Positions 22,325-64,000 of a DNA stretch of 64,000 nucleotides are shown piece after piece. The notes below the pieces were generated by a model that did no database searches, was not told where the DNA came from, and saw nothing but the letters and a program-made list of their open reading frames with translations. The translations under genes were made by a program, and so were the position numbers. Source of the DNA: Polyodon spathula (Eukaryota > Chordata > Actinopteri > Acipenseriformes > Polyodontidae); assembly GCF_017654505.1 (NCBI RefSeq), contig NC_054547.1, positions 22,678,823 through 22,742,822 on the forward strand, read 5' to 3'. How positions within the stretch are numbered: position 1 is the first letter of the stretch; each line of letters starts with the position of its first letter.

Positions 22325-22510
22325 AGGAACGTTATGATTTACGTGGTTACGTAAGAAGCCAATCGGCCCATCGGTGCTCATCCAGTTCCTAGTGCGGGTG
22401 AATCTAAAAACCTTGTCAAGTCTGGTCTTAAAGGATCCCAATGATTCAGCATCAACAACATGTCTAGCGAAGTGTCTCCTACCTTCTGTCCAGGGTCTGT
22501 CGCCTTGTTC
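22325..22510 (-). mobile_element. Diverged CR1-like LINE 3' end
   Basis: Carries GAAGCCAATCGGCCCATC, a match to the GAAGCCATTCGGCCCATCTTG tract of 30690-30720, and AAAGGATCCCAATG-TTCAGCATCAACAACATG matching the coding end of that copy. Orientation is minus. Older or a different subfamily than the other CR1 copies here. Confidence 0.6.
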
Positions 22511-30667: not shown

Positions 30668-31590
30668 TTTGACTTAGAACATAAAGTTTACAAACGAGAG
30701 GAAGCCATTCGGCCCATCTTGCTCGTTTGGTTGTTAGTAGCTTATTGATCCCAAAATATCATCAAGCAGCTTCTTGAAGGATCCCAGGGTGGCAGCTTCA
30801 ACAACATTACTGGGGAGTTGATTCCAGACCCTCACAATTCTCTGTGTAAAAAAGTGCCTCCTATTTTCTGTTCTGAATGCCCCTTTGCTTACACTCCATT
30901 TGTGACCCCTGGTCCTTGTTTCTTTTTTCAGGCTGAAGAAGTCCCTTGGGTCGACACTGTCAATACCTTTTAGAATTTTAAATGCTTGAATTAGGTCGCC
31001 ACGTAGTCTTTGTTCAAGACTGAACAGATTCAATTCTTTTAGCCTGTCTGCATATGACATGCCTTTTAAGCCCGGAATAAGTCTGGTCGCTCTTCTTTGC
31101 ACTCTTTCTAGAGCAGCAATATCTTTTTTTATAGGGAGGTGACCAGAACTGCACACAATATTCAAGATGAGGTCTTACTAGTGCATTGTACAGTTTTAAC
31201 ATTACTTCCCTTGATTTAAATTCAACACTTTTCACAATGTATCCGAGCATCTTGTTAGCTTTTTTTATAGCTTCCTTACATTGTCTAGATGAAGACATTT
31301 CTGAGTCAACAAAAACTCCTAGGTCTTTTTCATAGATTCCTTCTCCAATTTCAATATCTCCCATATGATATTTATAATGTACATTTTTATTTCCTGCGTG
31401 CAGTACCTTACACTTTTCTCTATTAAATGTCATTTGCCATGTGTCTGCCCAGTTCTGAATCTTGTCTAGATCATTTTGAATGACCTTTGCTGCTGCAACA
31501 GTGTTTTCCACTCCTCCTATTTTTGTGTCGTCTGTAAATTTAACAAGTTTGCTTACTATACCAGAATCTAAATCATTAATTCTGTTACTG
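30668..31590 (-). mobile_element. CR1-like LINE, 5' truncated
   Basis: Minus sense. 31511-31014 encodes the end of the reverse transcriptase (KIQNWADTWQMTFNREKC, YEKDLGVFVDSEMS, NALVRPHLEYCVQFWSP). After one frameshift near 31130, 31110-30734 encodes the typical tail (DIAALERVQRRATRLIPG, LNLFSLEQRRLRGDLI-like, FFTQRIVRVWNQLPSNVVEA, SFKKLLDD). The 3' UTR carries GCCATTCGGCCCATCTTG. The catalytic YADD region is beyond the truncation. It is the best-preserved LINE in the window. Confidence 0.92.
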
Positions 31591-35377: not shown

Positions 35378-36745
35378 TTTCCTGAAAGAGAAGACCACCA
35401 ATACATTATGTATAGGATATGCCTGCCTATTGGTTGATATTTTCTGAACTCTCTATACCAGAGCTGCCGATAGGCCCCTTCCTGGGATGACGCCCTCGGT
35501 TCCGCCTACCGAGTGGTTAAAGCCATCATTTCATGGAAGCCATAACTCTTTCTGCATCGAAGCCGTGAGGGCGACCGATGTAACCTCGCTAGTTGGTGGA
35601 CATCTTCTCTTTCAGGGAACCAGGGTTACGGTAAATAACCTAACGTTCCCTTTCAATTCGAAGATGACCACCAAAACATTACGTATGGGAAATGTATACC
35701 AGAGCCGTTGCGAGGGAGAAGGAACGGAAGCTTACAAGGGATGCATCGGAACCGCTTAACCCTAGGTTAGCGGTGCGAGCGTGCAACTTCAAGGACCCTC
35801 GTGCCTATTGAAGGCAAAGAAGGATCTACTGCATTCAAACGGTAGAACCTGGAGAATGTATGCGGTGTAGACCAGCGAGCCGCCGTACATATATTGGAAG
35901 AGGGCCCAAGATTTAGACAACCCTCTAGTGGAGTGCGCAGCTACTCTCCCAAGCATGGGTAAGCCAGTACTGTCATATGCCGCAGAGACTGTATCAACAA
36001 TCCAGTGGGACAGTTGCTTTTTTAAGAGGGGCTGTCCTAGGGTACGCAAACTGTGACAAACAAAGAGCTGATCAGAATGACGCAGAGCTCTTGTTCTATC
36101 CACGTAATATCTCAGCGCCCGCACTGGGCAGAGGAAGTTTTTTTTAACCTAGCTGCTGCACCACACAGGCAAGCGGGTATATCACGTGTTCACTACAGAT
36201 GTTCCAGCAAGGGTATTTAGTCAACAACAACAACCATGTATATATATGCCACATGGCAGCTAGTTTAGTTGCTCAACAGTGAGTGAAGGCATAAGTGAAG
36301 GCTGGAAAAAAAAACAACAACACTTACTCCTTTAAATCAATACTGTACAGGCAGTCGACACATGTACCACAGATAGGAAAGCAGCAGTCTTTGCTGAGGA
36401 AAGATAGAAAGACAAATGCCTGATCAGCAGTAACTGATTCCGTAAAAGCGGCAAGCCAGCTTTCAGCCTGAAAGGAAAGGGAACTGCAGTAGACTCAAAG
36501 CTCTTTTTCAATATATGCTCAGATAGCAACACAGAGGGTTTTACCTTACCATCTTGAGAGGGGAAAAAGAGAAATGACTTCCATGGAATGACAGCTTTAA
36601 CCCCTCGGTAGACGGGACCAAGGGCGTCATCCCAGGAAGGGGCCTATTGGTAACTTTGGTATAGAGATCAGAAAATACCTACCAATAGGCAGGCATATCC
36701 CATACGTATTGGTTGGTGGTTGTCTTCGAATTGAAAGGGAACCAG
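35378..36745 (-). mobile_element. Internally deleted DIRS-like element with inverted terminal repeats
   Basis: Arms of about 180 bp at 35378-35570 and 36560-36745 are inverted copies (ATGCCTGCCTATTGGT, ATAGGCCCCTTCCTGGGATG, CATGGAAG). Between them at 35615-35700 is a third copy of the arm's outer edge (GTTCCCTTTCAATTCGAAGA), as expected of the internal complementary region of DIRS elements. The only gene remnant is the recombinase end at 35789-36124. Gag, reverse transcriptase and RNase H are gone. Confidence 0.75.
35789..36160 (-). pseudogene. DIRS tyrosine recombinase, C-terminal part
   Basis: MRALRYYVDRTRALRHSDQ, KKQLSHWIVDTVSAAY and AHSTRGLSKSWALF match the C-terminal catalytic domain of fish DIRS recombinases; AHSTRG holds the second catalytic H-x-x-R box. 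The frame stays open to 35789 but drifts after that box, before the tyrosine. Confidence 0.78.
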
Positions 36746-49369: not shown

Positions 49370-50741
49370 CATTTATGTATCTGAAAGCTAATGTTTTCAA
49401 ATTAGGAAGGAGGTCAGCTGGCGATGACCAAAACAAGTCGATGTCAATTTCCCCTGGCGGTAGAACGCTGGATCGCATCGGGTGCCACTTAAGTGTACAA
49501 AGCAAAACAAAAAACATATTTTTTACTCTCTCTTTAGCTTATATATTTGCAAGGTGGGACCTTTGTCGTGGCATTTTCTGTCAAAATCGATCAATGTTCC
49601 CTTTATCTTCAGGCGGATCCAACATTTTTTCCAATATTATATGTATGCACGGTGATAGATTTTAGCGTAAAATTATGCCGGTGCATATATGTGTAATTTT
49701 CCAGGGTGTACTTGAACTCATTAAGTACATGCATGTTTTGCATTTCAGTGAGAATCATACTGTGTGCTACGTCATTTTGCCGGCAAAATATTATTTTGTT
49801 TTGTTGTTGCCAGACTATAATTGTGGATGTAAGACCGTTTACTACCTTAGTTATTTTAAACAGTGACCACTGAACTGGTAAATCTATAGAATTACCGATT
49901 TTACACATGAACTGTAACACACACACACACAGATATATATGGTTTGATGATTACCTATTTGATTCTGTGGTGGATTCTTATATCAGAAATACAACAGTTT
50001 CCAAAAATTGATATATGTAATAAATACACCTGTTTAAAAAAAAAAAAAAAACTTTATACAAGAGATGTGGCATTCTTACTTCATTTTAATAAATACAGTA
50101 TTACAATTCCAGTAGTTTCCAAATAAAGTTTCCATCCTTGATATTATATAATATTAATCAGAAAATAATAACTACAAATACTATTTGAGATTAAAGTTTT
50201 GTTGAAGACTCAAAAAGAGTCCCCCCTTCTTCAAAGCTAAGCTCAATCATTCGATGGTAACTAGATAATACTTATAGGGTCCCAGCTATTTTTGCCTGTT
50301 TTTTTTACCATTGTTAGATTAGTGGCTACAACTCTTTAACTATAAAGGTTACTGGTAACATGAAATTAATGTGTCTGAAACTCACCATGTTCAATACAGA
50401 TAACAAAAAACATATAAATAAATACATGAATAAAACATTTATTGTTTTCAGTATGTATTTTAGCAAGGTCAACTCAAATCTGACAATGTATAATGAAACT
50501 TCAACATGTAGGGAACATGAGAAAATGCTTTTTAACAAATTGGATAATAAATAAGGGAATTATGGCAAAATATACAAAAGGGACCAAAGCAACCAAAAAA
50601 GAAACAATTGAAAAATGTGCAAAAGAAAAAAAAAACACATTCAAATTATTCGACCCAGCGACACTGATCATGTGGTACAAAATGGGGCTGTTCACTGTGG
50701 CTTGAATGGCCAGCAGGGTGGCGACCAGGGCAACTTAAAGT
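49370..50741. other. No gene seen
   Basis: AT-rich; ORFs at 49609-49926 (minus) and 50326-50705 lack domains. A tract 50036-50050. Confidence 0.5.
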
Positions 50742-51289
50742 TTTGAATTCAAATCAAGGGAAGTAATGTTAAAACTACAATTCATTAGTAAGACCTCATC
50801 TAGAATATTGTGTTAAGTTCTGGTCAACTTGCTACAAAAAGGATATTGCTGCTCTAGAAAGAGTGCAAAGAAGAATGACCAGAATTATTCTGGATGTAAA
50901 AACCATGTCATATGCCGACAGGCTAAAGAATCAAATGTATTCAGTCTTGAACAAAGAAGACTACTCGGCAATCTGATTCAAACTTTGAAAATTGTAAAAG
51001 GCATCGACAATGTCAACCCAAGGGACTTTTTCAACCTGAAAAAAAGAAACAAGGACCAGGGATCACAAATGGAGATTAGATAAAGGGGCATTCAGAACAG
51101 AAAATAGGAGGCGCTTTTTTAACAGAGAATCAGTGGTCTGGAACCAATTCCCCAGTAATGTTGTTGAAGCTGACACCCTGGGATCCTTCAAGAAGCTGCT
51201 TAATGAGATTCTGGTAACAATAAATACTAACGACTAAATGAGCAAGATGGGCCGAATGGCCTCCTCTCATTTGTAAACTTGTTCTTATG
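50742..51289 (+). mobile_element. CR1-like LINE 3' part
   Basis: Same family as 30668-31590, plus sense: LRPHLEYCV-like start, KDIAALERVQRRMTR, coding tail and a 3' UTR with GAGCAAGATGGGCCGAATGG and final CTTGTTCTTATGTA. Several stops. Confidence 0.9.
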
Positions 51290-51639
51290 TAATTGTAGCA
51301 GCTGTTGCCTCATGCATCTGATCCACAAACACAAAAAAAAAGAAAAAATGTAAAATATGTATACATCATCGAAAAGACGTAAAGCACAGGTCTCTAGTCG
51401 TTTTTCTCTGGAAAAAGCAGAGAAAACCATTCAATGGCCGAATGAAACCGAAAAAAATAAAATAAAAAAGGGGTGTGTGAGCAGTAGCCCTAGCAGATTC
51501 ACCACACAGAAATAAGCGGACATAAACAAGGAGGTAGCTGTTTCTGCATCCAGCGCTCAAAGAATATCACAGACATTTGCAGATCTTTTTGAGATGTTAT
51601 AGTAGTAAAATAATGACTTGGATCGCATTATTGAGGAGT

Positions 51640-52401
51640 TTAGTGATAAAATGAGTGATTAGGAGAGGATTTATCAGTATGCCCGTCTACAAAGAGGTAT
51701 GTGAAAAATACAGCAAACACGGGGTGGGTCTTGGCTGGAGATGCAGTACTGATGTCGCTTAGCATTGCAATGCCTTTTAAACCGGTTTTACTCTGAAAAA
51801 ATATATATTTTAAACAGTACGTGTAAAATAAATAGCGCATATGAAAATAAATTGGATGCTGCAACAGTGAGCAGATCTGAAGAGGGATTCGAGATTTGCT
51901 GTAGTGAGGAGTAATTAACAGTAGGTGGCAAAATCTGCTGAACAGGCAGAGATCCGAGGGAGTAATGCTGTCAGTAGTGTGCAGAGATCTGCTGAATGCA
52001 TGGATATTGGTATATGAAACTAGTTTTAGATGATGTCGAGATGGGGCTGTCTTTGGGCAGAGATGAAGAATGCACAGTTCTAAGGCTGCTGCAGAACCTG
52101 AGAGGATGAGAATGCATTGCTCTGAGGCTGCTGCAAAACCTATTGATTTGATCGGGAGCAATCTATGAGTATATTGACTGTTGCGGTGTAGAAGGACACT
52201 TTGACTGAAATGTTGATAATCATAGGACATGGTTTCCGAGCCTGACTGGCAGCTCATATTGAATGAAATAGTGACTTTTATAAAGTGCCTTGATGAAATT
52301 GGGGACAGATGAAGTGCGAATCTAGGAACGAGAAGGTTGTAGTAATGGTCTGAAATTAATGTGAGAGGAATTCTTAGTGGAGTGAATTCACAGTTATGCA
52401 T
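51640..52401 (-). CDS. Unrecognised 253-codon ORF
   Basis: The longest open frame outside GC-rich repeats. It is rich in Ser, His, Leu and Tyr. I recognise no domain, signal peptide, regular membrane segment or transposon motif. The plus strand is purine-rich here with many TGA/TAG but few TCA/CTA/TTA in the matching frame, a bias that could keep the frame open by chance. Treat as hypothetical. Confidence 0.2.
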   Translation of the reverse strand: MHNCEFTPLRIPLTLISDHYYNLLVPRFALHLSPISSRHFIKVTISFNMSCQSGSETMSYDYQHFSQSVLLHRNSQYTHRLLPIKSIGFAAASEQCILILSGSAAALELCILHLCPKTAPSRHHLKLVSYTNIHAFSRSLHTTDSITPSDLCLFSRFCHLLLITPHYSKSRIPLQICSLLQHPIYFHMRYLFYTYCLKYIFFQSKTGLKGIAMLSDISTASPAKTHPVFAVFFTYLFVDGHTDKSSPNHSFYH

Positions 52402-52689
52402 ATCTAAAAATTAATCAAAAGGTTATGCGAATAATGAAAAGGTGTTTCCATTAAAATCCATTTTTTACAAAAAACACCAGCTAAGATGCAGACTTCAACC
52501 ATATGAGAAAGAGCCAGCAGCCGTGGTTGCTATTATTCTCATTACACATCCCTCTCCCCTTGTACATCTTGCTGTTAGTTTCATGAGTTCTAGTAATTCA
52601 TATTTGTTTTCTTTTATGGGTCTATTGTCTTATTTGATAGAGTTTGTTGAACAATTAAAAGGGAAAAAAAGGTATTCGTAATGAGTATG

Positions 52690-53050
52690 GCCATAAACTT
52701 TAAGTAACCCTGGTTCCCTGAAAGAAAAGACAACCAACAACCAATACTTTATCAATCAATGAGGCTCCTCTAAAGGGGACTTATGACGTAGCCACTCCTC
52801 GCATAGAGTGTGCGGCCGGCATTAGTATATGCAGTTGGAACTGTGTCCACAATCCAGTGACAGGGCCGCTGCTTCGAGAGGGCTTGACCCAGGGTCCTCA
52901 TCCTATCCACATAACCTCTCAATTTCCAGTCCATCTCTGATCCTTCTCCAAAGAATAAGGACAGGGATGGAAAGCCTCTAATTCCATCGATTGATCTCCA
53001 GTATTCCAGGGGACCCATTATCATGGGGGCAAGCCCCCAGAAAGGGAAGG
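52690..53050 (-). pseudogene. DIRS recombinase fragment
   Basis: Minus sense: LRGYVDRMRTLGQALSKQR and HWIVDTVPTAYTNAG, homologous to the recombinase at 35789-36160 (HWIVDTVSAAY). The left side includes CCCTGGTTCCCTGAAAGAAAAGAC, the arm edge of the same family. A family-1 LTR cuts in at 53051. Confidence 0.72.
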
Positions 53051-53421
53051 TGTGGCAGGCTGGCGAGTGGATATAGGCCCAGAGACAGTCTGCAGTTAAA
53101 AAAAAAAAAAATAATTTTATTATAAATAACACAAAAATAAAAGTGCACAAGGTTTCCAGGCTGGGCAATGCCTTCACTGGATTCAAATTTACCAAACCAA
53201 AACCAACAAACAAACAAACACCAACCTGCTTCCTCAGCTCCCTCCTCCTAAATGAGAAGCAGAGGCCTCCTTTTATGTCAGGTGGCTGGGCGCTGATTGA
53301 TCGTTAATTAACCTAATCAACTAATCAACCCCAGCCACCTGAACATAGTAAACCCAGGCAGGTAGAAGAAATTAACCCCATCCCTGCCATTTTAAAAAGG
53401 GCAGAGCTTTGCTCTGCCACA
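53051..53421 (-). mobile_element. Solo LTR, family 1
   Basis: Minus strand TGTGGCAGAGCAAAGCTCTGCCC...CAGCCTGCCACA, 371 bp, inserted in DIRS sequence. Flanks GAAGG and AAAGG form a target duplication with one mismatch. It holds a TATA region (ACATAAAAGG on the minus strand) and poly(A) signal. Confidence 0.88.
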
Positions 53422-53899
53422 AAAGGGGAGGGGGTCGAATTTTCTATGAGTTTGCAGAGAGACAGCCAGGGTGACAGTAGCAGACTCACAGAGCTCCAGA
53501 CCCCTAATGCATAGAATCTAAATTCTCCCTTTTGTTATTATTTCAGCTCGAGAATAAATCTGATGATTTCTGAGAAATTGAGTGCCTCATTCATACAGTA
53601 TTGCATCACAACACAACACATATTCCACCCACTACCACTGATGTGCAGATTATAATGGTTGCATATGCATCACCTGTATTTGTAAAACAAGTATATTGGA
53701 CTTTAATACAGCTCTGCAGTGTTTATTTTTACCATATAAAGCATTTCAAATATCTCAAACTTCATTTATCTACAACAGTGGCGGGAGCAGCATTACAATT
53801 TTTTTGGCGGGGCTAGGCTAGTCGGTCTAAAACTTAACTGAAAAAAATAAATAAATAACATAACCTTAGTCAGGTTTACAGACATGTGTGTTATACAAA

Positions 53900-53958
<59 letters not shown>

Positions 53959-54835
53959 TTTGGTTTACTTTTGCCAGTCTTACTTGACTTGAACAATGTC
54001 TTAAATGATGCAAGCAAATTACTACTTGGTTTGATTGAATGAGCTAAATCTGAAAATGAACTTTAATAAAGAACGACACATTTTTAATAATAAAACCATT
54101 CTAGCATACTTCACTAAAGTGAAACCATGATTTTGTTATTTTGAAATACCGCTGCTTCAGATTATTACTAGTGCTTAATAACAGTAACAACATTTTATTT
54201 AGAGTTGGTTCTGAACTTAAATCCATTTATGGCCCCGCAGCAACACAAACCTACTTCCTTGTTATAAAAAAAAAAAAAAAAAAAAAGCCATCACAAAAAC
54301 AAAAAGTCTGGTTCTCTCATCTTTTGTCAATGAATATAACTGAATTAATACATAATAAAAACAAACTAAACTAACAACTACCTAGCCTATATTTATTTAT
54401 TTGTTTTGTAGTCTCCAAACCAAAACTGCCCAGCATCTTGTTGCAGACACGCAGCTGATAACGTCAGCTGTAAACAGTGCAGTGTTGGTGGATCAAACCA
54501 ATGTTCGTGTATGGTGAACTATTATTGTGTTTTGTTTAGTTTTTTTCTTCTTTTACCAATGGCAGACTTCTGGCGTCTTCTGAATGACTTTTGTGTTTTT
54601 TTTTTTTTTTTTTATTACTACACTTTAAGACTTTTAAAGGCAAAACCATAAACATAATAATAGTGTTTACTGAGCAAAAAAGTAAAGGGGCAAAATGTAT
54701 ACCGGTATTGCCTCCCCTGTGCTCTATGGGTTAGGCGCCTACAGTCTCAATCAAGTTACAGTCACAAAAATCAAGTGCCTGCAAAAAACATTTTTACAGT
54801 TTTCCATGATAAAAAATATATACCCCTGTCACAAG
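53422..54835. other. No gene seen; microsatellites
   Basis: (AAT)n at 53901-53958, A tract 54266-54285, T tract 54597-54614. Nothing coding recognised. Confidence 0.55.
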
Positions 54836-54927
54836 GCTGGAACAGGGACAACAATGGGCCATGGGTGTTGGCCATAGTGGGAGGTCCTCCTCCCACCCCA
54901 ACAGCTGTAGTGGCCAAGGCAATCCTG

Positions 54928-55695
54928 TCAACCGCAGGGCTGTCTGTGGGCATGGTTCCCCCCCCCCCCCCCCTCTCTGTAGCCAGCAGCTCCCCTCTTG
55001 TGGGGCTCTGGCCACCAAATTCTCTGCAGCGAAAGTGCTGCGTGGGAAGGTGGTCTCCTGACCTCTCCCCCCTTCTTCAAAGCCGGCAGCTCCCCCTTGT
55101 TGGGCTCTGGCCACCAAATTCCCTGCAGCGAAAGTGCTGCAGGGGAAGGTGGTCTCCTGACCAATCCCCCCTTCTTCATAGCCGGCAGCTCCCCCTTGTT
55201 GGGCTCCGGCCACAGTATTTCCTGTGGAAAAGCAGGGCTGACAGCAACCCCAGGCAAAGCAGTTCTGGCGACCCCAGGCAAAGCAGAGCTGGCAACGCCA
55301 GGCAAAGGCAGTAGCGGAACCCCAGGAGATGGCAGCAGTGGACCCTCGGGAGGCAATGGCAGCAGCAGCAGCGGACCCTCGGGAGGCAGGAGCAGCAGCG
55401 GACCCTCGGGAGGTGAACTTGGGAGGGGAGCCCCTGGCCATAGAGGAGGCAGCAGGAGCTCCACTTGTCCCTCGTACCCTGTAACTGGTAGCTCCACAGG
55501 CAATGCGGAGCAGCAGACAACCCCGGGCGAAGCGAGGCAGGCATCCTTGGGCGAAGCCAGACAGGCATCCTTGGGTGAAGCGAGGCAGGCATCCCTGAGT
55601 GATGACATGAAGGCGTTGTGTAGGCATCCCCGAGCAATGATGTGCAGGGAGTCAGGACAAGCTGGGGTGCGGGTTTTGGCCCTCTTCTTGGCCAC
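54928..55695 (-). CDS. Proline-rich repeat protein of element C
   Basis: A 255-codon frame. In order: three copies of a 13-residue unit (SPKDACLA type), four PPEGPLLLL units, SPAFPQE, then KGELPAMKKGG-RRPPSPAALSLQ twice and a third partial copy. The last blocks match 41846-42193 of element B in the same frame, strong evidence that this of the several open frames here was selected. No catalytic or membrane motif. Other overlapping frames (54794-55627, 54998-55840) are shadows. Confidence 0.5.
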   Translation of the reverse strand: MAKKRAKTRTPACPDSLHIIARGCLHNAFMSSLRDACLASPKDACLASPKDACLASPGVVCCSALPVELPVTGYEGQVELLLPPLWPGAPLPSSPPEGPLLLLPPEGPLLLLPLPPEGPLLPSPGVPLLPLPGVASSALPGVARTALPGVAVSPAFPQEILWPEPNKGELPAMKKGGLVRRPPSPAALSLQGIWWPEPNKGELPALKKGGEVRRPPSHAALSLQRIWWPEPHKRGAAGYREGGGGGNHAHRQPCG

Positions 55696-55774
55696 TGCGG
55701 CCAGGCGGTTCTTCCCCGTGCTTCCCTCAGCAGCCTATGCAAGGGCTGCTGAGGATTGCCAGGACCGTTGCAGC

Positions 55775-56055
55775 TGTATCGAGACTCGATTGCTAATAAA
55801 TCATTCAATTGGAATATCTGTACAGCTGCACGTGAATTAATGAAGTGCAATTCCCCATGCTTACATATTATTACATTTTACCTGCACGTGAAGTGCTATG
55901 CAATCCTTGTGCCTAAATACAAATTACACTCTATAACACTTGTGCTCATAACCCATATTTATATCCTGTGTACTTTATACATAAACACCAACATTAACAC
56001 ACTACATACAACATAAAACACTAATAAACACAAATCGCTGGGACACTCTGCCACA
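55775..56055 (-). repeat. LTR of element C, family 2, partial
   Basis: Minus strand TGTGGCAGAGTGTCCC...GAGTCTCGATACAGCTGCA, where it meets interior sequence; the promoter and poly(A) half is missing. Confidence 0.82.
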
Positions 56056-56329
56056 ACCCCCTTGGCTTTTCTGGCAATTGTTAAGCAATGACTTATATGC
56101 CTTCGTTGCCAAGTTCGTGTCTTAGCAACTACAGAAAATACAAATAAAATCTGTGGAAACAGCCAAGGAAACAGACAGAGACAGAAAAAACAAAATGGTA
56201 GTCTTAAACACCATATAGTGCAAACTTTTTATAAGCAATTTTTTCATGATTTTTTACAATACTTCGTCCATGACTAGAAATCGTTGTTTTAAAATTCTAT
56301 GTGTTTTCCATGATTTCCATGACCGTACA

Positions 56330-56560
56330 AACCTGACATTATTAATGGTTGTCAGCCAGTTCAAGCTAGGGGTAAGACAGTCACCATGCCAGGTGGGTGA
56401 GCAGTCAAAAGCCTTTTTAATTATTTATTTTTTTCAAGCTTTGTAAGGTTAGAAAGCAGACCACAAGGCTGTTGAAAAGAAAGATTAAACAGAGCGCAGT
56501 TGTGCAGCGTTTATAGCTCAGTCTTCAGAAGCCGAGTTTCTGATTCGCCCTTGATCTTTT
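56330..56560. repeat. DIRS-related repeat copy
   Basis: AAGGTTAGAAAGCAGAC, TTGAAAAGAAAGATTAAAC and GAGTTTCTGATTC match 46895-47015 in order. 56056-56329 before it shows no gene. Confidence 0.55.
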
Positions 56561-56622
56561 AGTAAAACTCATCGAGAGAGCTCGTGTCACACAGAGTCAC
56601 TCGTTGCAACTGGATAGGGTAG

Positions 56623-57038
56623 TGTGGCAGAGCAAAGCTCTGCCCTTTAAATTGGCAGAGATGGGGTTAACTTCCCCTACCTGCCTGGGTTTATTATGTT
56701 CAGGTGGCTGGGGTTGATTAGTTGATTAGGTTGATTAACGATCAATCAGCGCCCAGCCACCTGATATAAAAGGAGGCCTCTGCTTCTCATTTGGGGGAGA
56801 GGGAGCTGAGGAAGCAGGTTGGTGTTTGTTTTGTGGTTTTTTGAATTTTCTAAATCCAGTGAAGGCATTGCCCAGCCTGGAAACTTTATTTTTGTGAGTT
56901 TTGTTTTTGCTTTATTTGTGTTTGAGTATCTGTTATTTTGCCCTTGTGCACTTTATTTTTGTTTATTTATAATAAAATAGTTATTTTTTTGAACTGCAGT
57001 CTGTCTCTGGGCCTCTATCCACTCACCAGCCTGCCACA
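56623..57038 (+). mobile_element. Solo LTR, family 1, full length
   Basis: TGTGGCAGAGCAAAGC...CAGCCTGCCACA, 416 bp, the most complete family-1 copy. TATAAAAGG at 56765 and AATAAAATAG at 56971 give promoter and poly(A) signals, so U3, R and U5 can be placed. Flanks GGTAG and AGAGC do not match; the right flank is in a segment that appears complemented, which may hide a duplication. Confidence 0.9.
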
Positions 57039-57255
57039 AGAGCACTCTGAGAGTTTTAAAGTCGGTATCTCATAGAGTTCACCCCGGGGTTAGCTATATA
57101 TTCAGAGAGACGTGTTCCGGAATGGGGGAACCCTTTCCGACCCATGGCGTAGCGCATTGGTCAGTTGACAAATATATACTTGTGTAACAATGTTCCGTTC
57201 GTCGGGACATGTCATAACAAATAATTCTTACCCCCAAGGGGGACGGGAACATGAC
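57039..57255. other. Probable complemented-in-place segment 1
   Basis: Complementing each base without reversing gives, at 57243-57255, TGCCCTTGTACTG, identical to the normal sequence at 57257-57269 one base later. The 60 bases before the junction are rich in CpG with hardly any GpC, the reverse of the surrounding DNA. The left border is placed at the LTR end for want of a better marker. Confidence 0.55.
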
Positions 57256-57256
57256 A

Positions 57257-57699
57257 TGCCCTTGTACTGTATTTTGTAACATGTATTTGTATATCTATGT
57301 CGCTTTACGGTATAGATGACAGCGAACCACTGCCATGCATTTTGTTTTGTTTGGTGTTGTATTTTGCAGCGTGGATGGGAAGCCCCATCCACATTAAAAA
57401 CCCATGCAGAAGGTGGCCATTTCCGAATTAAGTGATTCATTTTTTGCTAATCGGGAGATGGCCACCTGTATAAAAAAGCCTGCAGCTCTCCATGTTCGGG
57501 CCTGGTGTTGAGTGGCGGAACTAGATCGGAGAGAGAGAAGAGAGATTAACTTTACAAAAAAGACCAAGGAACAGTGAAGGCACTTGTTCAGCCTAACTTG
57601 GGTTTTGTTATTATTGTGTTCTAGATTTATTTTGTTAATATTTATTTTTGCTCTGTGAGCAGTGTTTTGTGTTTAAACATTTTATTTATTTTGTTTTTT
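57257..57699 (+). repeat. LTR-like sequence, normal orientation
   Basis: A TGTATAAAAAAGCC box at 57471 and T-rich, TTTAT-rich sequence to a CATAAATGG at 57702 suggest LTR promoter and R/U5 parts on the plus strand. No second copy in the window. Its 5' end may continue into the complemented segment 57039-57255. Confidence 0.4.
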
Positions 57700-58971
57700 T
57701 TCATAAATGGCACATCAGATTCCTTAAGGACATCGAGAACGTCTTGACCATGATGGGGGTCAGGCCCCAACTTGAACAAATTTATTAATGCCCAACCAAA
57801 ATGCCCTCTCTGAGAACGATTGTCCAAGACAGAGTACTTCGCAGGCTGAAGCTTCGAGCCGAAATCCGGTATCGAGGACCTCAGCGATGTTCTGACGGTC
57901 TACAGACTCCGACCCCAGATGGGGTAATGATGATATCATACTACTAGATCAAAGTCCTGTCAGTGTTCACAGACAGTGACATCCTAGGAGATTCCTGTAG
58001 GATCATCCATATTTCGTGACAAATGCAGTTTTGCCAGGTATAAAGCACTTCGATTACGCCAATAGCGGTGCCCGGGTGACCAGGTGAAGCTAAACGGTTA
58101 TCGGTGTAACTTCCAGATTCTAAATCTTTTGTCACCGTGGTGGGTTCCATAGGTCCATCAGAAGTCAGAATCACTCACCTATCAGTAGACGGTCCCAGTC
58201 GAGTACCCAACTGCCATCCTTTATGTGGTAGCATGGGGTGGTAGGAAAAAAAGGTCTGATCAGGCTGACCTCTACGGGTAAGTCTGTCTCCACCTCCCAC
58301 ACTGTTGTGGACGTAGGTCGTACCATACTTCTACAACGAGAAGAAGGGAACTTTAGAATTACAGTGGCCACAGAGTCACCGACGACGTGTCCGGAAGGAA
58401 CCGGTGTATAGTCACGCCACACACTGTGTCTTTTTACCGGATCAAGTCACAGTGAGTAACGTTTCTAACTGACCATGAGATGATAAGCCCCCAATACATA
58501 GACGAGAAACGACCAGACGTCATTCGGGGAGTGTGAATTGTATCGCTTTTACTAGAACGTCCCAATCGACCGTCCAGGTTAAGCGAGTGTCAAGCGTTAG
58601 CGGGATACGTTTTACCAACCCACACCCCCCACCGATTGAGAGAGTTGCAGAAGTGGCTAACGACTACAACGTACAAACGGAGGTAGTCACGAAGACCTTG
58701 ACATGGATTTCCAGACCTATCCAAAAATGTTCTTGTGGTAAGGCTGTTCGTACTTGGAACACCATTCCGACAAGGTTGTCTCCTTTACAATGTCTGGGAC
58801 TCCAGAGTGCTGAGGTAACAGACTTCTAAGAGGTAGCCGATTCCAGGTCAGTCAAGGTAAGTCACCATGGGAAGAGATTTCAAAAAGATCCCTAGGGGTG
58901 GCGTTCACAAGTGTGGGGGTACCATGTGACTTAAAAAGAACAGCATATGTGAGAACTTGACACATCTTGTT
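57700..58971. other. Complemented-in-place segment 2: gypsy reverse transcriptase
   Basis: Neither strand read normally gives sense. Read from right to left without complementing, 58273-58243 gives SPVGLVWKKR, then YPLTKTEDYLDTLGGA, then GYWQIEVDQ at 58104-58078, then RLQELW and ELQEFLRLHGKY at the left end. These are successive motifs of a gypsy-type reverse transcriptase running toward the RNase H. Stops and small shifts show it is a pseudogene. It continues the minus-sense element that starts at 61830. Frames such as 58171-58422 in the normal readings are spurious. Confidence 0.8.
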
Positions 58972-59182
58972 AGAACAGAAAATAGAAAATAGGAGGCACT
59001 TTTTTACACAGAGAATTGTGAGGGTCTGGAATAAACTCCCCAGTAATGTTGTTGAAGCTGACACCCTGGGATCCTTCAAGAAGCTGCTTGATGAGATTTT
59101 GGGATCAATAAGCTACTAACAACCAAACGAGCAAGATGGGCCGAATGGCCTCCTCTCGTTTGTAAACTTTCTTATGTTCTTA
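58972..59182 (+). mobile_element. CR1-like LINE 3' end, normal orientation
   Basis: AACAGAAAATAG-AAAATAGGAGGCAC, coding tail and 3' UTR with GAGCAAGATGGGCCGAATGG, ending CTTATGTTCTTA. Close to 50742-51289 and 30668-31590. It reads normally although both flanks need complementing. Confidence 0.9.
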
Positions 59183-60715
59183 TCTTCTTGATATCCAGTT
59201 ATACTCAATATGAACACCCATGTTCAAGCAGTGGATATTTGTGGAACCCCACACATGTACAGGTGTCCGTCTTGGGCTATAGGAGTCCGGTTTCTCCAGC
59301 AGGGCTCCAAGGACTCCCCTGGCCCCTTAGGTTGTGTCCACAGGATTAGATGTACATAAAGGGTTAATTTCTGGGAAGACGGTTCACAGTGCCACTTGAG
59401 GCGGTTATCGTCGGCCAAAGAAAGAAACTAAGACGTAACGCTTCGGTTTGCGAAGAACTACGAGTCACCCAGGGGTTCGAAGTGTTCGACAAGTATGTTC
59501 AGTAGACCTCTCTTACCACACCGAAGACGAGGACACAGTTGATGTCGGAGTTGTAATTCACAAAGTGTATTAACCCTAAACGGTCTGATCCAGGTGCCTC
59601 CCGACGAGAGGGATGTTGTTAACTCTGTTCCCACTACGAGACAAGGACAAGGTGAGTATAAGGAGACCACTAGGGTTGAACCAGGCTCATCCCAAAACCA
59701 CCGACTTCCCCGATACCCTCAGGAAGGGGCCAGGGACGAGTCCTTCTTAGCCCTGCTGGAGAAACCGGACTCCTAGCCCACCCGATAATGGGGATGATTG
59801 TTGTAACAGTATCCAGTCGATGTTAAATAGGTGGAAGAGATTTTGTAAAACGTCGACGAGCCAAACATCGTATACTGCCGTAGACCTGAGCGGCACTACG
59901 GCGTCCGTGTAACACGAAGGGGTGATAGTTGTGAAAGTAAACGGGTTCGTTGGCCCGTAACGTTGGAAGGAAATCGAAGCTCCAGAGCCGGTTCACAACG
60001 AGCTATTACACGAGTACGTGGAGGAGATAAAAGATACGAAGTGTTCGCAACAACCTAGGAACAAGTACTAGAGTATTCGGTGTAAAACTAAAGATTCAGG
60101 AAACTCCTTCTTTAGTTGTCGATCAACTACAACATCGAGGTTGATAGGACTATCCGGTTCTAATCCTGGATCGCTACGTGGAGGAGGTGTTTGATTCGAT
60201 TGCTGAGGAATAAGACTACGTCAAGCGGTTCCAGGACGTCTGACACCAACCCCCCAGGAGACTGTGCTTGGGGGGTCCTCTGACAAAGATGATTTTCTCT
60301 CTCAGGAGAGATTGTAGGAGACCTTCACTTCCTGTACATAGACTAACGTCGGGGAGAGTCGCAAGTGCCATCGAACAGGTGTTCAGAGTCGCGGTCGGGT
60401 CGGTACAGAGGTACGATGAGCGAGTTTCTCCTTGTTTTTTACTTAGGGACAGAAGAAACGATAGTATCCTATGATCGAACTGTAACCTTGTCGTACTTAA
60501 ACGTCTCACTAAACTTGACATTCTGACCATCAACAATTCAGAGTGACGACGGGGTACCATACAATGATGGAGCCAGTTGGTCATGACATCCCCACATTTT
60601 TCATGACCGGGGGGACGGGTTAAGTACCACCCACACCTGAACAAGTCCCGGGTACAGGTCTTGATAGTCAGGGCCTCTTTCAACTGACAGCCGGGAGGAC
60701 AGACCTTGTGGCGTC
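59183..60715. other. Complemented-in-place segment 3: gypsy gag and protease
   Basis: Right-to-left reading without complementing gives FLKGLRNQNVAYE (60115-60077), a Gag capsid-type helix region, then a degenerate zinc knuckle (KCFREGG, about 59850) and then a retropepsin with VDTGAE at 59541-59524 followed by the usual hydrophobic stretch. This order and direction continue from the normal gag start at 61136-60716 and on to the reverse transcriptase at 58273. The last 26 bases (60691-60716), complemented, repeat the next 27 normal bases. Confidence 0.85.
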
Positions 60716-61136
60716 GGCCCTCCTGTCTGGAAGTACCGCAGCATGTGGATGGTTCATGTACAAGGTAAAGTTCTGAGACTGTGGGGCTGAGCTGCTGGAT
60801 CTCTGACTTATAACTTCCAGCTCGGGAGCAAAATATTGTTCTGGGCTGGTGGAGGCAGATCTGGGCGTGGCACCATACAATGACAGAGCTGGGGTCGGTG
60901 GACTGGGTGTGACATTGTGAGCAGCAGTCAAGCTATTTGATCATTGTTTATCCTCTGCACTAGAGCTGGCACCCTTAGTAATGCATTTCACAGCTGATTC
61001 AATTTGCTGTAGAGCTGGTCACAATACCTGTAGTTGTTTTATCTGGTGATTCAAGTAAAGCTTGAAGCCAAATTGAAGGTTGTTCAGTGTGGCTAGCTTC
61101 TGCAGCATTCTCTGAAATTGCTCCTGTCTGTTCCAT
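60716..61136 (-). pseudogene. gag: Gypsy gag, N-terminal part, normal orientation
   Basis: Minus sense from ATG 61136: MEQTGAISENAAEASHTEQP, then WLQALLESPDKTT, a stop near 61003, a shift, and an open frame to 60716 (PEQYFAPELEV, LYMNHPHAAVLPD). The protein continues only in the complemented segment to the left. The stop and shift show it is no longer active. Confidence 0.72.
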
Positions 61137-61538
61137 TTTAATACATATAGTATTACTAATTTATTCACAGTTTTGCTTATATGTCCATAAGAATGAAAAG
61201 GCAGCTAGATGTTGTACAGTGATTAATGCAGAAACAAAAAGTCCCGATGCTCGCCGTTTTTTTTTTTTAGCTGCCTTCCCGGTCTTACTTGATACAGTAG
61301 TAGGCTTGCACTGTGTGATTATTTGGCTGCGTTCCAACTCTCAATTGATACAATGGCACAGCTGCACTGGTGATTGTTTGGCTGTTTGCCAACTTTTCAT
61401 TCCTGCAGCGACAGCCTTGGTTAACTGCACAGTACATCAATGAGACGAGCACACCACTCCATCGCAAAAAGTCACAGTTTTTACAATTCCTCCGTTTTAA
61501 AGAAAGTCTCTTAGTTGACAAGTTTAAATTAACAAACG
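61137..61538 (-). other. Leader of the gypsy element
   Basis: Between primer site and gag start; no gene on either strand that I can support. Confidence 0.5.
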
Positions 61539-61554
61539 TCCCATTGCTGACACC
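61539..61554 (-). promoter_or_regulatory. Primer-binding site (tRNA-Leu) of the gypsy element
   Basis: Minus strand TGGTGTCAGCAATGGGAC, two to three bases inside the LTR, one or two mismatches from the tRNA-Leu complement used by element A. Confidence 0.78.
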
Positions 61555-61557
61555 ATT

Positions 61558-61830
61558 TGTTGTGCGTGTTTTTTTATGCAGCGTGGGTTAAATGGAGTTT
61601 ATAGCAATTCCAACACATTTATTGCATACCAATGCAAGGTACACAGTGTCAGCACTCACCGAAAAACAGACAAAGGCAATTGTTATTATTAACTGGATAT
61701 TTCCTCAGTTGCAGAACTCACAACGTGGTGCTTTAGCTCCAGCACGAACATCAGCAGGATGTCCATACCATGAGCATTCAAGCAACCAACTAACTAACAC
61801 AAACAATAACTGGTTCTAACTTGTTTGTCA
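61558..61830 (-). repeat. 5' LTR of the gypsy element
   Basis: Minus strand TGACAAACAAG...CACGCACAACA, 273 bp, with an AATAAATGTG signal near 61625. The right border is set by the TG and is tentative. No matching 3' LTR is present at the left end. Confidence 0.55.
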
Positions 61831-61906
61831 CGTCTGGCGGTGCAGCCTTTCTATTGGCTAGCCAGCAGATGGAATAGAACACTGAAACTGCAGCAAGCAT
61901 TCATTA

Positions 61907-61931
61907 TGTTATATATATATATATATATATG

Positions 61932-61981
<50 letters not shown>

Positions 61982-61983
61982 TA

Positions 61984-62028
<45 letters not shown>
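61907..62028. repeat. (TA)n and (CA)n microsatellites
   Basis: TA repeats with one GACAA interruption to 61977, then CA repeats 61985-62029, ending at the Tc1 terminus. Confidence 0.95.
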
Positions 62029-62031
<3 letters not shown>

Positions 62032-62398
62032 GCCTATAGAAAGTCTACACCCCCTTTTAAAATTTTCACCTTTTGTTGCCTTATAGCCTGGAATTAAAAT
62101 GCATTGAAATAGTTTTTTTTTTTTTTTTTTTTCATTTATCTACACATCATACCTCACAACTTCCAAGCGAAAAAAATATTCTAGAAATTTGTAGAAAATA
62201 AATTAAAAATAAAATAATACCCTGTCCTTGTAATAGCAATCCTAAATTAGCTCAGGTGTAACCAATCACCTTCAAAATCACACACCAAGTTAAGAATCCT
62301 CCACCTGTGTTAAATTGTATTGATTCACATGATTTCAGGATAAATTCAACAGTTCCTGTAGGTTCCAACTGCTTTGATTTCAAAGCAAAGACTCAGCC

Positions 62399-62774
62399 AT
62401 GAACACCAATGCACTTTCAAAAGAACTCTGGGACAAAGTTGTTGAAAGGCACAGATCAGGGGATGGGTATAAAAAAAATATTAAAGGCCTTGAATATCCC
62501 TTGGAGCGCAGTCAAGACGATAATTAAGAATTGAAAGATGTATCGCATCACCAAGACCCTGCCTAGATCAGGCTGTCCCTCCAAAGTGGATTACCGAGCA
62601 TTAAGGCGATTGAAAAGATGCTATCGCATCAGGTCAATGACAACTTTGCCTAGATACAGGCTTTTGTGGCCAAGACTGGTCAAACTGTGCATGTGACAAG
62701 CATAGAAGGAGACTGATCAAATCAGGCATGTATGGTAGGGTGGCAATAAGGAAGCTTTGCTCAAGAAAGCCCAA
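62399..62774 (+). pseudogene. Tc1 transposase, N-terminal part
   Basis: From ATG 62399: LSKELWDKVVERHRSGDGYKK and later the second helix-turn-helix region, broken by shifts and substitutions. It runs to KKA-like sequence at 62770, then is followed by a complemented copy of an earlier part. Confidence 0.75.
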
Positions 62775-62940
62775 TACGTCCGACCCCGGTTTTTTTTTCC
62801 TACTGGCTCGTTCTTCCTATATGACTAGTTTCTCACATGGTTCTCCGGTTGTTTGTTGAAAACGTTTTTGATGTCCGAAAACACCCGATATGTTCACACG
62901 TGTGGTCTAGGGTTTTGACGTGGTGTTTAGACCGAAAGTG
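62775..62940. other. Complemented-in-place segment 4: Tc1 fragment
   Basis: Base-by-base complement gives GGATGACCGAGCAAGAAGG, then AAGAGGCCAAC, CTACAGGCTTTTGTGG and CCACAAATCTGGC, in the right order and spacing for the Tc1 gene in which it lies (compare 62582-62660 and 62940-62982). The last 40-odd bases, complemented, correspond to the normal sequence that follows at once. Confidence 0.85.
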
Positions 62941-63492
62941 TGCATGTGTCAACAATATCCCAAACACTCCACAAATCTGGCCTGTGTGGTAGGGTGGCAA
63001 GAAGGAAGCCATTACTCAAGAAAGCCCATTACTCAAATATGCAAAAAACATGCAGGAGATTCTGTAGCCATGTGGCAAAAAGTTTTGTGGTCTGACGAAA
63101 CTAAAATGGAACTTTTTGGTCTAAATACAAAGCGTTATGTTTGGCTCAAACCTAACACACCGCATCACCAAACGAACACATTCCCTTCTGTGAAGCACGG
63201 TGGTGGCAGCATCATGTTATGGGGATGGTTCTCATCGGCAGGGACTGGGACACTTATCGGGATAGAAGGGAAAATGAATGGAACAAAGTACAGAGAAGTC
63301 ATTGAGGAAAACCTGCTGCCCAGTGCAAGAAAGCTGAAACTGGGACAGATGTTCACCTTTCAGCATGACAACGACCCACAGAACACAACCAAAGCTACAC
63401 TGCAGTGGCTAAGGAACATAAAGGTAAATGTCCCTGAGTGTCCCAGTCAGAGCCCTGACCTAAATCCAATAAAAATGTGTGGCATTATTTGA
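62920..63492 (+). pseudogene. Tc1 transposase, catalytic part
   Basis: An open frame of which the portion from about 62960 is genuine: KVLWSDETKMELFG (first aspartate), VKHGGGSIMLWGWFS, HDNDPQNTTKAT (second aspartate) and CPSQSPDLNPI (the third acidic position lies just beyond, near ENLW/MCGI, here lost to a frameshift). Nearly intact catalytic core but no complete N-terminus in frame. Confidence 0.85.
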
Positions 63493-63660
63493 AGATTTCT
63501 ATCCATCAGTGCTCCCCAAGGAACTTGACAGAGCTTGAACAGTTTGTAAGAAGAATGGTCAAATATTGTCAAATCTAGGTGTGCAAAGTTGGTAGAGACT
63601 TACCCCAACAGACTCATAGTTGTGTTTGCTGCCAAATGTGCTTCCACCAAGTATTAACTC

Positions 63661-64000
63661 AGGATAAGGGTTGTGGAGAAATGTGAGGAGAACTTGCTGT
63701 GAGCCTGAGTGGAGGTGGTGAAATGCAAAGAAAAGAAAAGAAAGAAATAGGTTTTTGGTGTGTGTAATTCGGAGTAAACAGGAGTAGCCTGTCCCCGTTT
63801 AAAGAGGGACACCTTTAGTGTTTAGTTACACCCAAAAAGGGTTTAGGCCTTTCTTTTGTTTTGTTTGCAAATAAAGCCACGCCCTGGCTTGTTTCATTAT
63901 AAGTACGGTTTTTGCTTGGAATTATTTATATATTCTGCAACACACAAAATCATTATCCTGGAAGGCAAATGCATTCCTCTCTCTCTCTCTCTCTCTCTCT
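63661..64000. other. Unassigned, ending in (CT)n
   Basis: No gene. An AATAAAGCCACGCC signal at 63871 after TAGGCC-TTTTG-rich sequence hints at an LTR end. CT repeats from 63979 run past the window edge. Confidence 0.4.

What the first reader, a model, noticed from the sequence alone, without database searches (positions are those of the whole stretch)
57700..60715. A 2.8-kb gypsy gag-protease-RT block written as a parallel complement
Seen: neither strand read normally codes here, but right-to-left reading without complementing gives, in correct order, FLKGLRNQNVAYE (Gag, 60115-60077), VDTGAE (protease, 59541-59524), SPVGLVWKKR (RT, 58273-58243), GYWQIEVDQ (RT, 58104-58078) and ELQEFLRLHGKY (57750-57700). 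Known: these motifs and their order define Ty3/gypsy pol. The normal-orientation LTR, tRNA-Leu primer site and gag start of the same minus-sense element stand directly to the right (61830-60716). Known inversion reverses and complements; nothing known only complements. So this is either an assembly fault of an unusual kind or a truly undescribed process. I judge the fault more likely.
Basis: partly seen in the sequence, partly recalled or inferred. Interest (0 to 1): 0.97.

Follow-up and report, generated by a model that had tools for sequence, protein, structure and literature searches.

The report
Assembly patch with missing complement step
About 3.6 kb of this animal-like sequence holds a broken retrotransposon whose letters are in the right order but, in patches, on the wrong strand, most likely because software reversed the letters without swapping A/T and C/G, so it is a curious data error and not a new biological process.

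Summary
The five motifs occur in the window only in the right-to-left, uncomplemented reading. A 70-residue RT frame in that reading has Ty3 reverse transcriptase as its best match among 177,635 PDB sequences (E 0.00051); the three normal minus frames match no RT. Apart from protein, CpG exceeds GpC in 3 of 64 1-kb windows, all here, and a 'reversed DNA' 5-mer score is 70.4 against 10.7 for the next segment.

But it is not one block. It is a mosaic (about 57.06-60.71 kb) of uncomplemented and normal pieces: a normal CR1-like repeat lies inside, and a normal-reading RT motif lies some 45 bases from an uncomplemented one. Five joints carry a short word followed by its plain complement, offsets 14-30; one such pair arose in 100 shuffles. 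This fits a patch of partly corrected long-read sequence whose uncorrected (perhaps lower-case) bases were reversed but not complemented; LoRDEC writes such bases in lower case (PMC4253826, passages). Artefact of this class: 0.87. The software step is inferred. Against: stop counts and open frames do not favour the reversed reading, and no raw reads could be seen.

The parts
57059..57257 (.). probable uncomplemented piece, left end of the mosaic
   Evidence: LLR -7.1 (1 of 2329 equal-length outside stretches as low), CpG 11 vs GpC 4; but without CG/GC words 53 of 2329 are as low, so tentative. Sequence up to 57038 matches two other places of the window in ordinary (inverted) orientation.
57243..57271 (.). 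joint 1: 15-nt word followed at offset 14 by its plain complement
   Evidence: 15 of 15
57258..57699 (+). normal-phase stretch, possibly an LTR in plus sense (by eye)
   Evidence: LLR +16.9, outside median 16.1; LTR call is inference
57700..58005 (-). unclear phase; holds ELQEFLRLHGKY in reversed reading (57737-57702)
   Evidence: LLR -0.65, 27 of 2320 as low; motif
58006..58049 (-). joint 2 (offset 30): normal minus reading KTAFVTKYG 58032-58006 beside the uncomplemented copy
   Evidence: 14-nt exact core; 23 of 27 columns, 69 columns at 73.9%
58036..58750 (-). uncomplemented piece, RT region (SPVGLVWKKR, GYWQIEVDQ)
   Evidence: LLR -27.9, 0 of 2288 outside stretches as low; without CG/GC words 0 of 2288; Ty3 RT hit
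58732..58774 (.). joint 3: 18-nt word and its plain complement at offset 25
   Evidence: 18 of 18
58757..58982 (.). perhaps normal-phase, weak call
   Evidence: LLR 0.89; 102 of 2326 outside stretches as low
58983..59185 (+). CR1-like 3' end in ordinary orientation inside the mosaic (family name recalled)
   Evidence: 96.4% over 197 nt to 30869-30676, 88.8% to 51099-51290, 70.4% over 108 to 22461-22355
59186..59353 (.). probably normal-phase; carries an inverted copy of 59724-59780
   Evidence: LLR 3.9, 707 of 2332 as low; inverted repeat 88% over 59 columns
59354..60238 (-). uncomplemented piece: protease (VDTGAE) and Gag (FLKGLRNQNVAYE)
   Evidence: LLR -35.4, 0 of 2274; without CG/GC words 0 of 2274; motifs
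60239..60285 (.). joint 4: 27-nt word and its plain complement at offset 20; suggests a short normal island
   Evidence: 26 of 27; phase of 60239-60262 not resolvable by composition (LLR 0.29)
60263..60712 (-). uncomplemented piece, Gag
   Evidence: LLR -15.4, 0 of 2308; 4 of 2308 without CG/GC words; against: a normal minus open frame crosses it
60688..60742 (.). joint 5 (right edge): word and its plain complement at offset 25
   Evidence: 28 of 30 columns
60716..61136 (-). normal-phase gag start of the same element (by position and frame, no family hit)
   Evidence: 60716-61137 LLR +35.2; ATG at 61136; minus frames; no gag family, piece 8
61540..61555 (-). primer-binding-site-like sequence
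   Evidence: tRNA assignment recalled

Best explanation
In silico artefact. A gap or low-confidence stretch in a repeat (a decayed minus-sense Ty3/gypsy element) was patched with long-read sequence, partly corrected and partly raw, lying in the opposite orientation. When the patch was turned round, every letter was put in reverse order but only part of the letters were complemented. The parts that escaped are best explained as uncorrected bases, for example kept in lower case and skipped by an upper-case-only complement table. Corrected pieces (the CR1-like repeat, short islands) came out normal. The word|plain-complement joints are overlapping ends of neighbouring pieces, or corrected and raw copies of the same bases, that could no longer be recognised as duplicates once one had lost its complement. 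Shown: the missing complement, the mosaic, the joints. Inferred: the patching, the lower-case route, the kind of reads. The confidence given is for 'the complement step was lost in software on a patch'; it includes the contig variant listed first among the rivals.
For: Uncomplemented signal by protein and by composition. CR1-like repeat in ordinary orientation inside. RT passes from the reversed reading (58104-58078) to the normal minus reading (58032-58006) in element order (that KTAFVTKYG is an RT motif is recalled). Five word|plain-complement joints at offsets 14, 30, 25, 20 and 25; at score 14 and offset below 60, 5 observed against 1 in total over 100 first-order Markov shuffles. Some copies differ by gaps as well as substitutions (joints 2 and 5). 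The RT motifs SPVGLVWKKR, GYWQIEVDQ and ELQEFLRLHGKY lie in three different frames of the reversed reading. [quoted passage not shown] CONSENT also reports uncorrected bases in lower case (PMC7804095, passages). One fish assembly combined LoRDEC reads, a custom gap filler and a final conversion to upper case (PMC7595290, section 7), so such a chain of steps exists in practice.
Against: No raw reads, letter case, species or assembly record could be seen; the window's own genome could not be searched. Stop counts do not favour the reversed reading (57700-58750: reversed 30/11/14, minus 13/22/15; 59354-60712: reversed 23/15/26, minus 23/16/13), and the longest open frame of the region is on the normal minus strand across the right joint, though it has no relatives and 35 of 1000 shuffles reach its length inside the block. 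Recalled salmonid repeats are absent, so the sockeye pipeline is an analogy only. The LR_Gapcloser paper has no word on reverse, complement or lowercase (PMC6324547, word counts and passages). I found no paper describing this fault. Frame breaks could also be natural decay. The inverted pair 59273-59328 / 59724-59780 is not explained. The island at 60239-60262 is inferred from its joint alone. Four of five joints match at 93-100%, better than raw long reads usually do (recalled), though only good matches would have been found.
Confidence: 0.87

Rival explanations
1. Variant of the same fault: whole small contigs placed in minus orientation were reversed but not complemented by a scaffolder or gap closer working with short overlaps, with no role for letter case. 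(This 0.3 is a share within the 0.87 above.)
For: Explains overlap-sized joints and alternating phases. GapCloser was used on two fish genomes looked at (PMC8042750, passages; PMC6739705, passages).
Against: Needs several contigs in 3.6 kb, with islands of some 20-30 bases, and none elsewhere in the 64 kb.
Confidence: 0.3
2. A soft-masked (lower-case) repeat in a finished scaffold failed to be complemented when the whole scaffold was turned round.
For: The affected sequence is mainly repeat.
Against: The CR1-like copy inside the block is in the same form as the other copies of the window, and no other block of this kind exists in the window; it does not give word|plain-complement joints.
Confidence: 0.05
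3. Real DNA made by a polymerase or reverse transcriptase that repeatedly changed to the other strand without turning round, that is, copied a parallel template after slipping back 14-30 bases.
For: The joints look formally like slip-back template switches.
Against: Requires hundreds of bases of parallel-template synthesis, for which I know of no enzyme; confined to one gap-sized stretch of the window.
Confidence: 0.02
4. A deliberate edit of the window (planted control).
For: Only one such block in 64 kb.
Against: A simple edit would have complemented the inner CR1-like repeat too and would not give imperfect overlaps.
Confidence: 0.03
5. Chance: motifs picked out of noise.
For: Most single pieces have no significant hit; stop counts and open frames do not single out the reversed reading.
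Confidence: 0.005

Closest known systems
Ty3/gypsy LTR retrotransposon, decayed copy
   Same: Gag, DTGA protease and RT motifs in Ty3 order (order recalled); nearest solved relatives Ty3 RT 4ol8 and Gag-Pol 7q5b; primer-site-like sequence and gag start in normal minus sense to the right
   Different: Most of gag-protease-RT is written without complement and in patches; RNase H and integrase were not looked for separately; frames are broken
Gap-filling and hybrid long-read assembly errors
   Same: Confined to a repeat, gap-sized, mosaic of two kinds of sequence with short overlaps at the joints
   Different: The usual errors are indels, chimeras and true inversions (recalled); a lost complement was not found described in my phrase searches

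Membership tests
Ty3/gypsy LTR retrotransposon | RT domain nearest to Ty3 | tested here: met
   reversed frame: 4ol8 E 0.00051, 42 residues matched; Pfam RVT_1 only E 0.12, below cut-off
Ty3/gypsy LTR retrotransposon | aspartic protease between Gag and RT | tested here: inconclusive
   VDTGAE in the right place; Pfam gag-asp_proteas E 0.096, below cut-off; no PDB protease
Ty3/gypsy LTR retrotransposon | RNase H then integrase after RT (Ty3 order) | not tested
   the block ends in RT at about 57700; no separate search was made
Ty3/gypsy LTR retrotransposon | two LTRs | tested here: not met
   no long direct repeat pairs the two flanks within 50000-64000 or 56800-61950; one LTR on the right by eye only
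Ty3/gypsy LTR retrotransposon | tRNA primer-binding site next to the LTR | tested here: inconclusive
   TGGTGTCAGCAATGGG at 61555-61540; tRNA identity recalled, not tested
Reversed-without-complement artefact | strand-asymmetric composition mirrored | tested here: met
Reversed-without-complement artefact | raw reads disagree with the assembly | not testable with these tools
   no reads available

The most novel reading that the evidence does not exclude
The genome really holds this sequence: an enzyme, perhaps the element's own reverse transcriptase, copied a parallel-oriented strand for hundreds of bases at a time, switching five or more times with 14-30-base slip-backs.
Probability: 0.02. 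Interest if true: 0.98.

Novelty: not a real feature. Interest (0 to 1): 0.27.

Why it matters
As biology it is almost surely nothing. As a warning it is useful: an assembly can hold stretches that ordinary aligners would not match to anything, because they are uncomplemented, and that hide real elements. CpG above GpC in a CpG-depleted genome, or word|plain-complement joints, would flag such stretches and could be run on published animal assemblies. If it were real, it would overturn the rule that strands are copied antiparallel.

Tried and rejected
Chance resemblance: rejected, which do not help the reversed reading. A single 2.8-3.0-kb block: rejected, it is a mosaic. Colour-space (SOLiD) decoding fault: considered because complement is invisible in colour space; the other two letter swaps were tested as joint types in 57000-61000 and gave one weak pair (A-C swap, score 12) and none (A-G swap), so not supported. 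Soft-mask fault: see rivals. Salmonid origin: recalled SINE, HpaI and Tc1 pieces had no hit at E 0.1. No tRNA (ARAGORN, bacterial code) and no Rfam family at gathering threshold in the window. Homologue searches: one protein search found 4 candidates and no hit; one scan of viral contigs found 3 pattern matches, none confirmed. Literature, by listing unless said: one paper for 'reversed but not complemented' (not opened, about regulatory elements); 6 for LR_Gapcloser with LoRDEC (one opened); 3 for lowercase with gap filling (none opened); 1 for LoRDEC with lowercase (passages); 0; 14 for sterlet assembly (10 listed, two opened for passages); 6 for further phrases (one opened: in PMC4776415 the phrase is about a figure, passage). 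Paddlefish and sterlet methods were looked at only because the CR1-like repeat reminded me of such fishes; the species was not identified.

Full report
Observation. In 12 frames (plus, minus, plain complement, plain reversal) of the whole 64-kb window each of the five quoted motifs occurs once, in the reversed reading only, in the order Gag, protease, RT. Two coordinates needed small corrections. In 58000-58210 a 70-residue reversed frame has four PDB hits at E up to 10, the best three being Ty3 RT 4ol8 (E 0.00051), Ty3 Gag-Pol 7q5b (0.0021) and 8r0s (0.016). The three minus frames give none, one and four hits, none an RT; plus and complement frames were not sent to PDB. Of ten frames given to Pfam (nine of the other readings and this one) only this one has a hit: RVT_1, E 0.12, below the curated cut-off. 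A shorter piece picked by eye behaves alike. Other pieces do not reach significance: protease piece E 0.096 in Pfam and no protease in PDB; Gag, SPVGLVWKKR and ELQEF pieces nothing relevant; six long X-marked frames nothing.

Results that do not help. Stops per frame do not favour the reversed reading: in 57700-58750 reversed 30, 11, 14 and minus 13, 22, 15; in 59354-60712 reversed 23, 15, 26 and minus 23, 16, 13. The longest open stretch of 57000-61900 is on the normal minus strand, 238 codons, 60932-60219, 164 codons of it inside the uncomplemented piece. It has no Pfam hit and two unrelated weak PDB hits; 35 of 1000 shuffles of 59354-60712 hold as long a run. I take it as chance, in a broken element, but it is not for the reading.

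Protein-independent test. In this CpG-depleted DNA, reversal without complement turns CpG into GpC. CpG o/e exceeds GpC o/e in 3 of 64 1-kb windows, 58001-61000; the lowest GpC outside 57001-61000 is 0.71, against 0.45-0.59 in those three windows. A 5-mer log ratio (normal against reversed), trained on the window outside 57001-61000, gives a best reversed-like segment 57852-60667 with score 70.4; the next scores 10.7. By segment (trained outside 56501-61900): 58036-58750 scores -27.9, 59354-60238 -35.4 and 60263-60712 -15.4, each lower than every equal-length stretch sampled outside (0 of 2288, 0 of 2274, 0 of 2308). With words holding CG or GC left out, 0 of 2288, 0 of 2274 and 4 of 2308 are as low, so the signal is not CpG alone.

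Mosaic. 58983-59185 is a CR1-like 3' end (name recalled) in ordinary orientation, 96.4% over 197 bases to 30869-30676, 88.8% to 51099-51290 and 70.4% over 108 to 22461-22355. 57258-57699 is ordinary (+16.9); 57059-57257 is probably uncomplemented (-7.1, 1 of 2329, but 53 of 2329 without CG/GC words); 57700-58005 and 58757-58982 are unclear. Within RT, GYWQIEVDQ stands in the reversed reading at 58104-58078 and KTAFVTKYG (a gypsy RT motif by recall) in the normal minus reading at 58032-58006: the coding sense seems to pass from one phase to the other in element order.

Joints. Looking for a word followed at short distance by its plain complement in the same direction, 57000-61000 holds five ungapped pairs of score 12 or more, at 57243, 58006, 58732, 60239 and 60688, offsets 14, 30, 25, 20 and 25. 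At score 14 and offset below 60, five were counted in 57200-60760 against a total of one in 100 first-order Markov shuffles. In 14 other 4-kb windows (up to offset 400; two best pairs shown per window, words of one or two letter kinds left out) two windows showed AT microsatellites with higher scores, four showed pairs of score 12-13 and eight none. Aligned, four joints match at 93-100%; the fifth (58006) has a two-base gap and two mismatches in 27 columns, or 73.9% over 69 columns. The right joint sits where the normal gag start ends, and the reversed reading takes over from there.

Mechanism. Overlapping ends, alternation of phases, short islands, motifs in changing frames and confinement to one repeat-filled stretch fit a patch from long-read sequence with good and poor parts, in which the turning step reversed all letters but complemented only some. 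[quoted passage not shown] The sockeye salmon assembly used LoRDEC reads (k 21), a custom gap filler and a final conversion to upper case (PMC7595290, section 7). I do not claim the window is from that assembly: recalled salmonid repeats are absent and the species is unknown. The LR_Gapcloser paper does not mention reverse, complement or lowercase (PMC6324547). Paddlefish and sterlet pipelines (DBG2OLC and GapCloser; SOAPdenovo and GapCloser) were seen in passages only (PMC8042750; PMC6739705). Whether letter case or a wrong contig turn is to blame cannot be told here.

Limits. The inverted pair 59273-59328 / 59724-59780, one arm in normal-looking and one in uncomplemented-looking sequence, is not explained. 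My phrase searches found no description of such a fault (mostly judged by listing), in open-licence papers only.

Verdict. Observation confirmed and refined; interpretation as an unusual assembly fault supported. A real parallel-template copying process is not excluded by sequence alone, but I give it 2%.

Noticed in passing
59273-59328 and 59724-59780: Ordinary inverted repeat (88% over 59 columns, differences mostly gaps) with one arm in normal-looking and one in uncomplemented-looking sequence; not explained.
   Followed up: partly
60932-60219, minus strand: 238-codon open frame across the right joint, no Pfam family and no relevant PDB match; probably chance.
   Followed up: yes
53051-53396 and 56646-57038: Inverted repeats, longest arm pair 150 nt at 94%, about 3.2 kb apart, with tandem repeats between; looks like ordinary mobile-element structure.
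   Followed up: no
22355-22461, 30676-30869, 51099-51290, 58983-59185: Four CR1-like 3' ends in the window, three of them 70-96% alike to the one in the block.
   Followed up: partly
62040-62500: Resembles a Tc1/mariner-type transposon end by recall; not tested.
   Followed up: no
62774-62935 and 35555-35726: Weak reversed-like composition (scores 10.7 and 7.5), far below the block; may be chance.
   Followed up: no
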